Assembly: GCA_026985675.1 (NCBI GenBank)
Contig: JALSPZ010000145.1
Span: 1-39,818 of the forward strand
Reading direction: 5' to 3'
Origin: Flavobacteriales bacterium
Lineage (GTDB): Bacteria > Bacteroidota > Bacteroidia > Flavobacteriales > Flavobacteriaceae
Length of the DNA: 39,818 nucleotides
Part shown: positions 3,318 through 39,708 of the stretch, in pieces
Numbering within the stretch: position 1 is the first letter of the stretch
How the letters are laid out: every line of letters starts with the position of its first letter
Program-made: the position numbers and the translations under genes
The notes under the pieces: model-generated
The model's input: only the letters and a program-made list of their open reading frames with translations
Database searches by the model: none
Told to the model about the DNA's origin: nothing

Positions 3318-6300
3318 CTAAAAAATCATTTTTAGCATAATACCCCCGGTATGAATTGCCCGATGATTTTCCGAAATACGGAAATTATAATTGAAATTCA
3401 TCTCCAAATAGGAAGTGAGTCTCCGGCGAAAGCTTAATTCTGCTAGCCAATTTTTTCCTTTTTGCAAACCTTCAAGCATCTGAAAAGCTACCGGAGTGGT
3501 ATCATTGCCCGAAAAATCATTGTTTACATAACGCAAACTCGAATGAAAATTCGAATTTTTTTGTGGATATGTAGTATAACTTAAACCGAAAATTTGTGAT
3601 TTCAAAAGCTCCGAACCGCTAAGATTTTGTTTGGATTTATATTTATAAAAAAGTTTTAAATCTGATTTTTTTACTTGTATAAAACTGATATTTTGCTCCA
3701 TTTTCTTTTCCGAAAGTTTATAGTTTTTCGTTGGATAATTTTCGGAATATCTTTCGGATTCAACCCAAGCAAATTTTTGTTGCCAAAGCCAATAATCGGT
3801 AATAAAATGTTTGATTTGTAAACTTCTATTTTCAATTTGTAGTGCTTGTTTACCGACAACCAAAAGCTGTTCATTCCCGGTTTTTTCCCACAACAAACGA
3901 AAATTATATTGTTTTTCTCCCCTATTGATTATCAACTCATTGCCGTATTTAAAATTTTTTATAAGTGCATTCATTGGTTGCCAAACCCAAAGTTTTCCGT
4001 TGCCTTGTTGTTTAATTTGATATGCATCATACCAAAAACTCTTATTATACAAATGACTCCAAAGCCCTTCTTTTCCCGTTGCCGAAGGATTGATAATCCA
4101 CTGAAAACCCAATTTATTATTAAGTGTGGGAATAAGATTTTTGGAAGGCAAAACCACCCGTATATATTGAGCTTGATCTGAAAAAACCGCAGGTTCAAAC
4201 TCATTTATTTCCTTGATGCCGTTACCGTTATAATCGTTCCATTGATAATTTCCTTGTCCGGGCAGAGTTTCTACATAGATTATTTCATCTTGTAAAATAT
4301 TGCCGTTAAAACTTTCCAAATTCAATTCTCCGGTAAAAACTCTTTTAAAAAAATATTGCTTAATTTGCGTTTGAAAAGTTATCATTCGTCTAAAACGATC
4401 TTGTCTGATATATTTAATGTTTTTTAAATTGAAATATAAATCCAAATTCCCTGTCTTATAAAGTTTACGTATTTTAACATACCCCCCCGCCGATTGTCGT
4501 GCCAAGCTCAAACGGTTGTTTGAAATGCTATCGTTAGCCGACACACGAAAACCGGCTTGGATAGCCAAACGCCCCGAATCTTTCTTGACAAATCCGGTTT
4601 CCCAATACCGATAAGCATAATTTAATGTGTCCCAAAAATTTTGTATGCGAGCCTCTCGTTTTTCCAAGTGCAAAGTATTAAGCCAATCCCATTTTTTTAT
4701 CGGGATTATTATTTTATTATCCGTATCAATCAGAAGCAAGTTTTTGGAATAATTTTCCTGACGAGTCAGACGATTTTGTGCTTTCCAACGGATTTTTTTC
4801 AATTGTCCGTATCCTTCAAAATAAATTTGTCCGGCACGAATACTATCCCGCATTTGAAAATATTTGAATCCGCTTTGCCAATTATCGTGTTTATTTTGAA
4901 AAGAAGTTCCTAAAATAACCGAATGTTGTCTTCCGAAAATACTATCCAACTGCCATCTTCGGGTAAATTCAGGGTCATAATAAGGATCCAAAGCTTTGAA
5001 ATTTTTATGAATAAAATCATATTGCCCGAAAATTTTCCAATTTTTCAAACTATCATTTCGAAGGATTCTTTCATATAACAAATGACTTGCCCCTCCGATA
5101 TTATTGCTATCATCCAATGATGAAAAAGTATTCAAATCCGTATGATTGAAAACAATTTCCGATGAAAAAAAATCTTTATCGGATAATTTTCGGTTAAAAC
5201 TTATACCGAGATACTTACTACTGACAGGTGCGGTCAATTTAATTTTAGGTTCGTAATCGCCATTCCCCGCTCCTACATATTTGTATATTTTTCCCAAAGC
5301 AACAATTTTATCAATTGTATAACTTCCAAGATTTTTGCCCACATAAGAAAAACGAACTTCATATAAGTCCGGTTCGTTTTGATTGGTATATTCAAAATAA
5401 AAATCGTTGCCGGATATTACTTTTTTGTAGAGAATTTTATTTTCGTTATACCCCGAAGGTTTTGCAGCCAATACATATAATTGATTGGGATTGTCGCCAG
5501 CATTTTTCAAAGCTTGAACTTGCTCGGGAGTAAGGTTGAACAATAGTGTTTTATTTTTATCATCTTGCTCTAAAAAAGTATATATTTTTAAATTTCCGTT
5601 CTTAAGCTTACCACTATAATTATTTTCGTTTAAGTATCTTAAATAATTTTGGTTGGAATAATTAAATTCGGCTGTAATTCTATCGTTTGCCGTAGGGTTT
5701 ACCGTTGGTTTAAAAATCAATTCACCGGTTTCGTAATTTAGAGTATAATCTTGCTGATTTTTCAAAATATTACCATTCAGATAAATTTTTTCACTTCCGG
5801 GAATCACAAATATATAGGTTTCATTGTTTTTGCCTTTAAGTAAATAAGGTCCTAAATTTCCTTCTTTAGCGGCAAATTGCATACGATTATAGTTTCCATC
5901 TACAATTCCACCGCTTATACCCATTTTATGATTTTTTCCGGTTTCAAATTCCAGTCCTTGTATTTTTCGTTGATATTTTAAAAAACGTGAGTTCTGTTTT
6001 TTTAAAATCAAATCGCCTCCGGTTGCTTGCCAAACGGGTCCGGTTAATTGCATATAAATTCGGTTAAATTCTTTATAAGATTTCGAAATTCCGGCATAAG
6101 CTTGCGGTAAGTTATCATCGGATAGAACGGCTTTAATTTTTACTTTTTTAGATAAATTCCCTTCAATTTTTAAATCCATCCCCGATTGCATTACCAAACT
6201 TTGATTGTTTCCGACATTTATTCCGCGTCTAAGATTTCCTTTGGTTTTTAAGTCGTCAAAAGGTTTAACTTGTGAAAGATTTTTAGTTGAAAAAACCGGC

Positions 6301-36689: not shown

Positions 36690-37310
36690 TCAATGGAATA
36701 ATTCATTTAAAATTTTTTCTCTATTATTATTTTTAAAATTTTTTTTCATTTCATTTAACAACTTAATATTTATTTCTTGTGGAAATTTTTCTTCTATAAT
36801 ATTTAACTCTTTCATTGCATTATTATTATCATACATAAGATAGTATGTAAAAGATTTATTTAATCTGTCTAATGATGTTAGTGATTTTTTATTTAAATAT
36901 AAATTTAATGTTTTTTTATAATAATATACAGCGCTATCGTGTTTATTAAAATAATCCATCAATAAACCCTTGTATAAAATAGTTAAGGTATCTCTTGGAT
37001 TTAAAACCAAAATATTATTGGTGTATTCTAGAGTTTTTTTTATACTATCAATATTTCGATACATACTAGTCAATGTTTTGTAGCCCCCAATAAATTTTGG
37101 GTCAAGTTTAATAGCTTCTTTCACTAGCTTTATAGCCTTCATATATTTTATGGTATCTTCTCTTGTTAATGGAACGTAACCAAAAGTTTCTAATGTGTCT
37201 TGAGACGATTTTATTAATACCATTGCTTTTTGTCTTTTATTGTAACTGCAAGAGACAATAAATACGTAACTAATGATTATTAATACGAATATTCTATTTA
37301 TTTTTTTCAT
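36690..37310 (-). CDS. TPR-type lipoprotein, putative immunity protein of Rhs-tail cassette A
   Basis: 206 aa; lipobox IIISYVFIVSCSYNK; TPR-like helices (VKEAIKLDPKFIGGYKTLTSMYRNIDSIKKTLEYTNNILVLNPRDTLTILYKGLLMDYFNKHDSAVYYYKKTL); start overlaps the stop of the Rhs-tail gene by 17 nt. Confidence 0.6.
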   Translation of the reverse strand: MKKINRIFVLIIISYVFIVSCSYNKRQKAMVLIKSSQDTLETFGYVPLTREDTIKYMKAIKLVKEAIKLDPKFIGGYKTLTSMYRNIDSIKKTLEYTNNILVLNPRDTLTILYKGLLMDYFNKHDSAVYYYKKTLNLYLNKKSLTSLDRLNKSFTYYLMYDNNNAMKELNIIEEKFPQEINIKLLNEMKKNFKNNNREKILNELFH

Positions 37311-38103
37311 AATAAAATAAATATGATTTTTTTAAGTATAAATGACTATTATTTCCTGCTGTATCACCCGTATATTGTATTATGTTTACATTTACTTTTA
37401 CTAATAAATTAGGTTTTAACTGTACATTAACCTCTCCAATAGGAATTACATTTGGGGGTAATTGTGGGGGGATAGAAAATGGTTTGAACTTACGAAAAAT
37501 TTCTTCGTTACTACCCGCTATTGAAAATCTAGCATTTGATACATCAGTAAAATTTGTAAAATTACTATCGACGTGGGATATTGATGCTGTAATTAATAAT
37601 TGTCCATTTTCATTTAAAGAAATCCTACACCCTACATTTCCAGATGCCCCTGCCCCTTCTCCTTCAATGAAAGAATAATGAATATTCATTCCAGTACTAA
37701 GATCTATATCAGTATTATTTCTGTATATTTTTTCATTGCTTATTCTCATAGGTTTTTTTATGCCAAATATTTGATTAGTATATCCTTTACCTAATTGCCC
37801 CTTAGTTAAAGTTGCTATTCTGTCGCCATCAACATACAAGTTATCTTTTTTATCATTTGTTTTAACCACATGTGTTTCTCCTGTTTTAGAATTATAAAAA
37901 TAATCATCTTCTTTTTTATCCACCCCCATCCCATCAACATCCATCAAACCAACAGGATTATCCGTTGCATAGGTGTATGGGCTTTGGAAGTAGTATTTTT
38001 CCGCCAGCGGGTCTGTGGCATTAAACTGTGAAATGCGCGGGTTGTAATAGCGGTTTGCAACTAATTTGTAATTACAATTATATGAAAAATTGCCGGTTTT
38101 CAT
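37294..38103 (-). CDS. Orphan Rhs-core-tail protein with unidentified C-terminal (effector?) domain, cassette A
   Basis: 269 aa; MKTGNFSYNCNYKLVANRYYNPRISQFNATDPLAEKYYFQSPYTYATDNPVGLMDVDG matches the end of the RHS repeat-associated core; the remaining ~210 aa are unrelated to cassette B. Confidence 0.8.
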   Translation of the reverse strand: MKTGNFSYNCNYKLVANRYYNPRISQFNATDPLAEKYYFQSPYTYATDNPVGLMDVDGMGVDKKEDDYFYNSKTGETHVVKTNDKKDNLYVDGDRIATLTKGQLGKGYTNQIFGIKKPMRISNEKIYRNNTDIDLSTGMNIHYSFIEGEGAGASGNVGCRISLNENGQLLITASISHVDSNFTNFTDVSNARFSIAGSNEEIFRKFKPFSIPPQLPPNVIPIGEVNVQLKPNLLVKVNVNIIQYTGDTAGNNSHLYLKKSYLFYYEKNK

Positions 38104-38158
38104 TGTTGTAAAGGTATGAAAATTTTTTGTTATCTTTAAAAAATAACCAAAATCAGCA
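37940..38158 (-). repeat. Conserved cassette head (Rhs core end + start codon region + upstream spacer), copy A
   Basis: Near-identical to 39400-39612, including non-coding CATTGTTGTAAAGGTAT(G)AA..TTTTTTGTTATCTTTAAAAA(A)TAAC. Confidence 0.8.
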
Positions 38159-38278
38159 TTGTGTTTTTTTTGGGGTAGTATTATATTTTTTTCTTAATGG
38201 TTTTTTGTTTTGTTTGGGAATATTTACCGCACGTGGGGAGTTGTGTTGTAGTAGAGTAACAAGTATTTTGAAACGAAA

Positions 38279-38785
38279 TCACTTTAAATATATGACTATT
38301 TCGCCAATTTTTTCTAATTTTCTATTGATAGGTTTTTTTACCACTAAAGTTATACTGTCCTTATCTCTTGAAATATCGAATGAAGAACCATATATTAAAC
38401 CAACAGGTTTATTATTGTAATAAATATCTCCATCAAAAATATATTCAATATATTCAGGTTTTTTCAAATCTATATGAATTCGTAATCTATCTTTATCCTC
38501 ATGAACAAAATAAATAAGCCCATAAAATTCTTGATAAAGACTGTTGGAAGTCCAAAAACGACAATATTGTCGAATTTGATTTTCCTGCTTAGGTTGAAAA
38601 CCTTTGAGGACATATTTTACATCTTCATTAATAATACCACCTTTTCTTCTAGCATCTTCTATATTATCATAAGAAAAGTAATGTATCATGCGTGTTTGCC
38701 CATTCATTAAAATATCACTTGCAACATAATATAGCCCAAGAATACCTATAAGTATTATCGTATATTTGAAATATTTTTTTTTCAT
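38279..38785 (-). CDS. Membrane-anchored putative immunity protein of Rhs-tail cassette B
   Basis: 168 aa; N-terminal TM KYFKYTIILIGILGLYYVASDIL; ATG starts 1 nt after the stop of the Rhs-tail gene 38787-39557. Confidence 0.6.
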   Translation of the reverse strand: MKKKYFKYTIILIGILGLYYVASDILMNGQTRMIHYFSYDNIEDARRKGGIINEDVKYVLKGFQPKQENQIRQYCRFWTSNSLYQEFYGLIYFVHEDKDRLRIHIDLKKPEYIEYIFDGDIYYNNKPVGLIYGSSFDISRDKDSITLVVKKPINRKLEKIGEIVIYLK

Positions 38786-38786
38786 T

Positions 38787-39557
38787 TTATCTGTTTAATT
38801 GTTCGCTAACATCTGTTCCTTCATTGCTTCTCTCAATTTCTTCTTGTTTTGTAACAGGTAGCCAGTTTTTTTCTAAAACAATATTTTGCGGATAAGCAGC
38901 TGAAAATTCGCCATCTTTTAAACCCCCTGCCCGCAATGCATTTCGAGGTACTGCGGTACAATCATTTATTAGTAATTTATATGTTTTATCAAAAGTTGTA
39001 TTGGCGGCTTTCTTCATTTTTACATCGGCTTCTTTACTTGTTTTAATACGGTAAGCTCGTTGATAACGCTGTATTATTTTTCCATCTTTATCTTTGTGTG
39101 ATGTATCAAGTCCTTCTCCATCATCATAATCATCTTTAAAAGTATTATGTTCGCTTTTTGCAAAATCTTCAATACTTTTAAAATATACACCCGCAGTAAA
39201 ATTATCGTTATCACTTACATTTTTTTTATTTGAACGTCCATTTACCCCGTAATCAGCATCATATGAATAATAGTACCAGCCATCTTTATCATTTCCAATA
39301 AGAACAGCTTGATGTCCAACTATATGATTTTTTTTATCCTCAGGATCTTCCGTATAACCATAATTTAATACGATAAAATCTTTCCCATCCGGATCCGTCA
39401 ACATCACCGGATTATCCGCTGTATAAGTATAAGGCGAAAAATTGGGATATTTTTCAGCTAGCGGGTCTGTGGCATAAAACAGTGAAATACGCGGGTTGTA
39501 GTAGCGGTTTGCAACTAATTTATAATTACAATTATATGAAACATTGCAGGTTTTCAT
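38787..39557 (-). CDS. Orphan Rhs-core-tail protein with putative permuted papain-like (NlpC/P60/LRAT-like) effector domain, cassette B
   Basis: 256 aa; MKTCNVSYNCNYKLVANRYYNPRISLFYATDPLAEKYPNFSPYTYTADNPVMLTDPDG core tail; C-terminal domain with IVGHQAVLIGNDKDGWYYYSYD (His) followed later by YKLLINDCTAVPRNALRAGG (Asn-x-Cys). Confidence 0.78.
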   Translation of the reverse strand: MKTCNVSYNCNYKLVANRYYNPRISLFYATDPLAEKYPNFSPYTYTADNPVMLTDPDGKDFIVLNYGYTEDPEDKKNHIVGHQAVLIGNDKDGWYYYSYDADYGVNGRSNKKNVSDNDNFTAGVYFKSIEDFAKSEHNTFKDDYDDGEGLDTSHKDKDGKIIQRYQRAYRIKTSKEADVKMKKAANTTFDKTYKLLINDCTAVPRNALRAGGLKDGEFSAAYPQNIVLEKNWLPVTKQEEIERSNEGTDVSEQLNR

Positions 39558-39612
39558 TGTTGTAAAGGTATAAATTTTTTGTTATCTTTAAAAATAACAA
39601 AAATCTGCCTTA
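39400..39612 (-). repeat. Conserved cassette head, copy B
   Basis: See 37940-38158. Confidence 0.8.
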
Positions 39613-39708
39613 CATACTTTTTGGGGTATTATCTATTTAATTTTTAATCATTGTTGTTCGGTTTTTTCTGGGCTAATACACTATTACAGTATAATAGATT
39701 AAGAAAAT

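What the first reader, a model, noticed from the sequence alone, without database searches (positions are those of the whole stretch)
38787..39400. Cassette B effector candidate: permuted papain-like cysteine peptidase/amidase tail
After the Rhs core the protein has GHQAVLIGNDKDGWYYYSYD (His in a hydrophobic strand) and ~120 residues later YKLLINDCTAVPRNALRAGG. This His-then-(N)xC order is the arrangement of circularly permuted NlpC/P60-LRAT-like folds ('YNLLTNNCTT'-type motif). A TM-anchored partner gene fits a cell-envelope target.
Basis: partly seen in the sequence, partly recalled or inferred. Interest (0 to 1): 0.68.

Follow-up and report, generated by a model that had tools for sequence, protein, structure and literature searches.

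The report
Rhs toxin tip, permuted NlpC/P60 type
A short bacterial gene encodes the detachable poison tip of an Rhs toxin, a cysteine enzyme of an unnamed family that probably attacks the lipids of a rival's cell envelope, next to a membrane-tethered gene that probably protects the maker.

Summary
ORF 38787-39557 (- strand, 256 aa) is a short Rhs-core remnant (about residues 15-58) fused to a ~200-residue tail. His82 (GHQ) and Cys200 (NDC) are in the order stated and invariant in 14 aligned family members collected here; a 15th, distant member keeps both by eye.
The fold call is well supported. The family profile matches Lnb_N (DUF4105) better than all 199 column shuffles, with His and Cys in register. 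A model of a family member has the permuted NlpC/P60 effector TseH as first PDB hit (prob 0.89, TM about 0.5). The superfamily's polar partner of His (D/N100) and Tyr before Cys (Y193) are present. Cys-His distance was not measurable.
Every member with downstream DNA held has a membrane-anchored, lipoprotein-like or integral-membrane partner; nine of these, the window's included, form one immunity-like family.
No Pfam, NCBIfam or PHROGs model covers the tail. It is a new clade of a known kind, here as a trunkless orphan cassette.

The parts
38787..39557 (-). Orphan Rhs effector ORF, 256 aa (core remnant plus toxin tail)
   Evidence: the ORF listing; TIGR03696 E 4.8e-8
39384..39515 (-). Truncated Rhs-associated core, residues 15-58, ending at DPDG; GC3 about 0.40 over residues 1-58
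38787..39383 (-). Toxin tail, residues 59-256: unnamed permuted NlpC/P60-like family; GC3 0.16, an abrupt change at DPDG
39312..39314 (-). His82, predicted catalytic, first residue of a strand (GHQAVLIGN); invariant 14/14
39258..39260 (-). Asp100 (D or N in 14/14), predicted polar partner of His82, paired across the beta hairpin
   Evidence: hairpin strands 82-89 and 93-99 in model; pairing is inference
38979..38981 (-). Tyr193, seven residues before Cys (Y 12/14, W 2/14), predicted fourth catalytic residue
   Evidence: Tyr role from PMC3142127
38958..38960 (-). Cys200 (NDC), predicted nucleophile at the N-terminus of a helix; invariant 14/14
38279..38785 (-). Partner / candidate immunity protein, 168 aa, N-terminal TM then a predicted periplasmic domain; its ATG lies 1 nt after the effector stop codon
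38705..38761 (-). TM segment of the partner, residues 9-27
   Evidence: hydropathy
39384..39645 (-). 5' module (upstream inverted repeat, ATG, core remnant) shared at 88-89% DNA identity with cassette A and a third cassette on contig C284

Best explanation
This is an orphan Rhs C-terminal toxin cassette with its immunity gene. The tail is a circularly permuted NlpC/P60 (papain-like) thiol enzyme: Cys200 is the nucleophile, His82 the base, Asp/Asn100 orients the His, and Tyr193 helps the oxyanion site. In intact relatives it rides at the C-terminus of a large Rhs shell protein. It is predicted to act in the periplasm of a competing bacterium, most likely by cleaving or transferring acyl chains of membrane phospholipids or lipoproteins, as its characterised permuted relatives do. 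The downstream gene makes an inner-membrane-tethered protein whose periplasmic domain would bind and block the enzyme. Shown here: motif invariance, profile and fold similarity, partner co-occurrence, modular core/tail boundary. Inferred: catalysis, periplasmic action, lipid substrate, immunity. Rough likelihoods: permuted NlpC/P60 thiol enzyme 0.9; envelope action 0.85; lipid rather than wall substrate about 0.6.
For: Family of 14 aligned members, from Rhs proteins of several Bacteroidota families and a Fusobacteriota plasmid, with His82 and Cys200 invariant; a more distant Alphaproteobacteria plasmid Rhs protein keeps both. The tail lies on a >2,860-aa Rhs protein in Chryseobacterium luteum. 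Profile vs Lnb_N: E 0.0054, His and Cys in register; reversed profile E 0.53; 0/199 shuffles reach it, and C92 vs Lnb, a known superfamily pair, scores about the same. Member L018's top two Pfam hits are Lnb_N (E 0.024) and TseH (E 0.05). PDB top hit TseH 6v98, prob 0.89, TM 0.49/0.51. Polar residue and Tyr of the superfamily present. Partners with TM, signal-like or integral-membrane sequences in every locus with downstream DNA held. Tox-Act1: H43/C151, toxic only in periplasm, membrane-associated immunity, phospholipase (PMC12994826).
Against: No Pfam, NCBIfam or PHROGs model reaches its cut-off. Models are moderate (pLDDT 68 and 71) from 4-sequence alignments. hhalign probabilities are low in absolute terms. 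The window copy lacks an Rhs trunk and a signal peptide, so it may be a silent reserve. Substrate is analogy only.
Confidence: 0.6

Rival explanations
1. Same fold and periplasmic site, but the enzyme cleaves peptidoglycan stem peptides or amide bonds.
For: Canonical NlpC/P60 and several T6SS amidase effectors cut peptidoglycan; TseH was first proposed as an endopeptidase (PMC12994826). Envelope site fits.
Against: The His-first, Cys-last order is the permuted group, whose S1 pocket is hydrophobic (PMC3142127). Profile match to canonical NlpC/P60 is only 14 columns. TseH and Tox-Act1 show phospholipase activity.
Confidence: 0.25
2. A protein-modifying thiol enzyme (protease, deamidase or transglutaminase-like) acting on a periplasmic or membrane protein.
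For: Papain-like toxins are listed among polymorphic toxins (PMC3482391); the superfamily is chemically diverse.
Against: Closest profile and fold matches are Lnb_N and TseH, not those groups.
Confidence: 0.12
3. A degenerate, non-functional remnant: an Rhs tail left behind by recombination, not expressed or delivered.
For: No full-length Rhs trunk with this core was found in the 95.6%-complete genome; no signal peptide; the cassette sits at a contig end.
Against: Reading frame intact, all family-invariant residues present, intact adjacent partner, own start with a 5' module conserved in three cassettes. A missing trunk may be an assembly gap.
Confidence: 0.25

Closest known systems
TseH (Pfam PF25218; PDB 6v98)
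   Same: Antibacterial effector; permuted NlpC/P60 fold; His before Cys; top PDB match of the family model and second Pfam match of member L018.
   Different: T6SS effector without an Rhs core; family members fall below the Pfam cut-off (13.9 vs 27 bits).
Tox-Act1 / Imm-Act1 (PMC12994826)
   Same: Permuted NlpC/P60 toxin; His...Cys spacing 108 vs 118 here; toxic in periplasm; membrane-associated immunity protein; sister of DUF4105, the nearest profile here.
   Different: T6SS effector of Salmonella; its sequence was not compared here; phospholipase activity shown there, not here.
Lnb_N / DUF4105 (PF13387)
   Same: Best profile match: GH strand and Y-x6-C helix motif in register.
   Different: Lipoprotein N-acyltransferase of Bacteroides with a long C-terminal membrane region; not a toxin; below cut-off (14.6 vs 22.2 bits, one member).
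YiiX / Peptidase_C92 and LRAT
   Same: Permuted order and the Cys, His, polar, Tyr set (PMC3142127).
   Different: Direct profile score to C92 not above shuffles (30/199 reach it).
Rhs polymorphic toxins with orphan C-terminal modules
   Same: Truncated core ending at DPDG, variable tail, adjacent immunity gene.
   Different: Window cassettes carry their own start and conserved 5' module and no trunk was found.
Cystatin-like-domain polymorphic toxins with papain-like fatty acyltransferase tips (PMC12419801)
   Same: Lipid-targeting papain-like tip idea and membrane-anchored immunity proteins.
   Different: Different N-terminal carrier (Cystatin-like, not Rhs); sequences not compared.

Membership tests
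Permuted NlpC/P60 superfamily (PPNE) | Catalytic His N-terminal to catalytic Cys | tested here: met
   His82 and Cys200 invariant 14/14
Permuted NlpC/P60 superfamily (PPNE) | Polar third residue one strand after His | tested here: met
   D or N at 100 in 14/14; placement opposite His82 is inferred from the hairpin
Permuted NlpC/P60 superfamily (PPNE) | Conserved Tyr shortly before Cys | tested here: met
   Y193 at Cys-7: 12/14 Y, 2/14 W; PPPDE1 also Cys-7 (Tyr101, Cys108)
Permuted NlpC/P60 superfamily (PPNE) | Homology to a known member | tested here: met
   hhalign with Lnb_N, 0/199 shuffles reach the score
Permuted NlpC/P60 superfamily (PPNE) | Papain-like permuted fold | tested here: inconclusive
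   TseH top hit prob 0.89, TM about 0.5, E 0.095; first model no papain-like hit above noise
Permuted NlpC/P60 superfamily (PPNE) | Cys and His juxtaposed in space | not testable with these tools
   model coordinates not exported
Pfam TseH, Lnb_N | Score above curated cut-off | tested here: not met
   13.9 vs 27 and 14.6 vs 22.2 bits, one member only; so not filed under either
Canonical NlpC/P60 (C40) | Cys before His; Pfam NLPC_P60 match | tested here: not met
   order reversed; no Pfam match
Tox-Act1 clade | Phospholipase activity; clade membership | not tested
   activity not testable here; sequence not fetched
Rhs polymorphic toxin | Rhs-associated core followed by variable C-terminal domain | tested here: met
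   TIGR03696 above cut-off, GC3 break at DPDG
Rhs polymorphic toxin | Full Rhs shell (repeats) | tested here: not met
   window copy is an orphan; the shell is present in relative L007
Rhs polymorphic toxin | Cognate immunity gene downstream | tested here: inconclusive
   co-occurring related partners; protection not tested

The most novel reading that the evidence does not exclude
A distinct, unnamed clade of permuted NlpC/P60 Rhs toxins with its own immunity family, acting on lipoprotein or phospholipid acyl chains (a weaponised relative of the Lnb acyltransferase), spread by self-starting orphan cassettes that carry their own 5' module and need no resident Rhs trunk.
Probability: 0.25. Interest if true: 0.65.

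Novelty: new variant of a known kind. Interest (0 to 1): 0.45.

Why it matters
It adds a family without a domain model to the small set of lipid-directed, papain-like antibacterial toxins. It links Rhs toxins of Bacteroidota to the TseH/Tox-Act1/Lnb branch of the superfamily. With the catalytic residues and a paired immunity family named, it is directly testable in laboratory E. coli. It also gives an annotation for 'RHS repeat-associated core' proteins whose tails are now hypothetical.

Tried and rejected
Pfam, NCBIfam and PHROGs scans of the tail: nothing above cut-off; DUF5097 and Ribosomal_L6e-type hits are noise. The G068 match is a beta-galactosidase-like protein with an acidic stretch; the G1086 match is a penicillin-binding protein: both dropped. 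phmmer and profile search of PDB sequences: no relative of the tail. IMG/VR scans: no relative; no phage match. First fold search with the window-led model: nothing significant. Direct profile comparison with C92: not above shuffles. Sharing of one immunity family does not extend to the partners of L019/L021 and L020, nor to the multi-TM partners of L006 and L009.

Full report
What is there. The window is contig C145 of a 2.13-Mb, 359-contig genome (95.6% complete). ORF 38787-39557 on the - strand encodes 256 aa. Residues 16-58 match the Rhs-associated core (NCBIfam TIGR03696, E 4.8e-8, above cut-off). The remaining ~200 residues match nothing in Pfam, NCBIfam or PHROGs above cut-off. Composition breaks at DPDG: GC3 0.40 over residues 1-58, 0.16 after, the usual sign of a swapped tail.

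Relatives. A genome scan with the tail found Flavobacterium branchiophilum, Chryseobacterium luteum and Sphingobacterium cavernae, all Bacteroidota. Plasmid searches found Haliovirga abyssi (Fusobacteriota) and Asticcacaulis excentricus (Alphaproteobacteria, conjugative plasmid). Genome samples of the window's own phylum added L018-L021, L024, L026, L029, L030 and L032-L034. The family is rare: 4 of 396 sampled genomes of the phylum, own included, and 3 genuine of 398 of the order (a fourth match there is a penicillin-binding protein). In C. luteum the tail ends a >2,860-aa protein with TcdB_toxin_midN, FG-GAP and RHS repeats, so it is a normal Rhs toxin tip; in the window it is an orphan.

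Active-site residues. In 14 aligned members G58, L64, G81, H82, W94, G107, F132, Y165, D178, C200 and P234 are invariant; position 100 is D or N in all; position 193, seven before the Cys, is Y in 12 and W in 2. The Asticcacaulis tail, outside that alignment, keeps His, a Y at Cys-7 and Cys by eye, with E in place of D/N100. The permuted NlpC/P60 enzymes are described as having a Cys/His/polar triad plus a conserved Tyr, with Cys near the C-terminus and a hydrophobic S1 pocket (PMC3142127). All four residues have counterparts here. Hairpin geometry then puts residue 100 opposite His82 (inference).

Fold. A model led by the Sphingobacterium member (pLDDT 71, pTM 0.73) has TseH, 6v98, as first hit among 350,542 PDB chains (prob 0.89, TM 0.49/0.51, E 0.095). 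The window-led model (pLDDT 68) gave nothing significant. Member L018 has Lnb_N (E 0.024) and TseH (E 0.05) as its two best Pfam families of 24,736. A profile of the 14 against 28 Lnb_N sequences scores 24.6 (E 0.0054); the low-threshold alignment puts GHQA on FGHT and YKLLINDC on YDFFYDNC. Column shuffles average 11.8 (sd 1.9, maximum 18.6; 0 of 199 reach it). The accepted superfamily pair C92/Lnb scores 23.0, while canonical NlpC/P60 vs Lnb is indistinguishable from shuffles. These lines (sequence profile, profile-profile, structure) agree on the TseH/Lnb branch. Cys-His distance was not measured.

Partner. The downstream ORF (38279-38785) has one TM at residues 9-27 behind a lysine-rich start, which by the positive-inside rule puts the rest in the periplasm. 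Every family member with downstream DNA held has such a partner: one N-terminal TM (window, L007, L008, L018, L019, L021, L024, L026 from its upstream GTG start, L029, L030, L034), a lipoprotein-like start (L020), or about three TMs (L006, L009; the Asticcacaulis ORF by eye). With TM segments removed, the partners of window/L007/L008 and of L018/L024/L026 match (0 of 60 shuffles), as do the latter and L029/L030/L034 (0 of 60). This fits periplasmic immunity proteins; protection is not shown.

Mechanism. The Salmonella effector Tox-Act1 is a permuted NlpC/P60 toxin related to DUF4105 and TseH; its H43A and C151A mutants lose toxicity, it kills only from the periplasm, its immunity protein is membrane-associated, and it cleaves PG and PE; TseH also showed phospholipase activity (PMC12994826). 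Lnb acylates lipoproteins (same paper). A papain-like fatty-acyltransferase tip with membrane-anchored immunity has been noted in another polymorphic toxin class (PMC12419801). By analogy the window enzyme most likely attacks lipid acyl groups. Peptidoglycan remains possible.

Cassette anatomy. Cassette B, cassette A (37294-38103) and a third cassette at the end of contig C284 share about 260 bp, from about 90 bp upstream of the ATG to the core end, at 88-89% identity. Only these three places carry it in the genome. It holds an inverted repeat (TTGTTATTTTTAAAGATAACAA) and the start codon. No full Rhs trunk with this core was found, though assembly gaps are possible.

Limits. Shallow alignments for AlphaFold, a fragmented draft genome, no biochemistry. 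The family tree and the delivery system were not studied.

Noticed in passing
window 37294-38103 (-) and 36690-37310 (-): Cassette A: a second orphan Rhs core remnant with an unrelated tail, followed by a lipobox-bearing TPR protein, so its partner also looks exported.
   Followed up: partly
window 39572-39645; 38121-38198; G000:C284:7635-7818 (L016): Three orphan cassettes share a 5' module with an inverted repeat and a TACCTTTA box just before the ATG; possible self-contained promoter or recombination unit.
   Followed up: partly
L019 and L021 (G356 contig C1, 4 kb apart); L026 (G811): Tandem short Rhs-core cassettes with own starts and, in G356, near-identical leaders: trunkless cassette arrays recur in other genomes of the phylum.
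   Followed up: no
L029, L032, L033, L034 (G1129): One genome carries four copies of the tail family on different contigs.
   Followed up: no
L088 about 4490-4930 (Asticcacaulis excentricus plasmid pASTEX02): Multi-TM ORF directly after the Rhs protein with this tail, absent from the distributed gene table; a candidate immunity gene.
   Followed up: partly
L009 4914-5890 (Haliovirga abyssi plasmid pHIC): Effector tail and three-TM partner annotated only as hypothetical proteins, near an IS3 transposase and an integrase.
   Followed up: no
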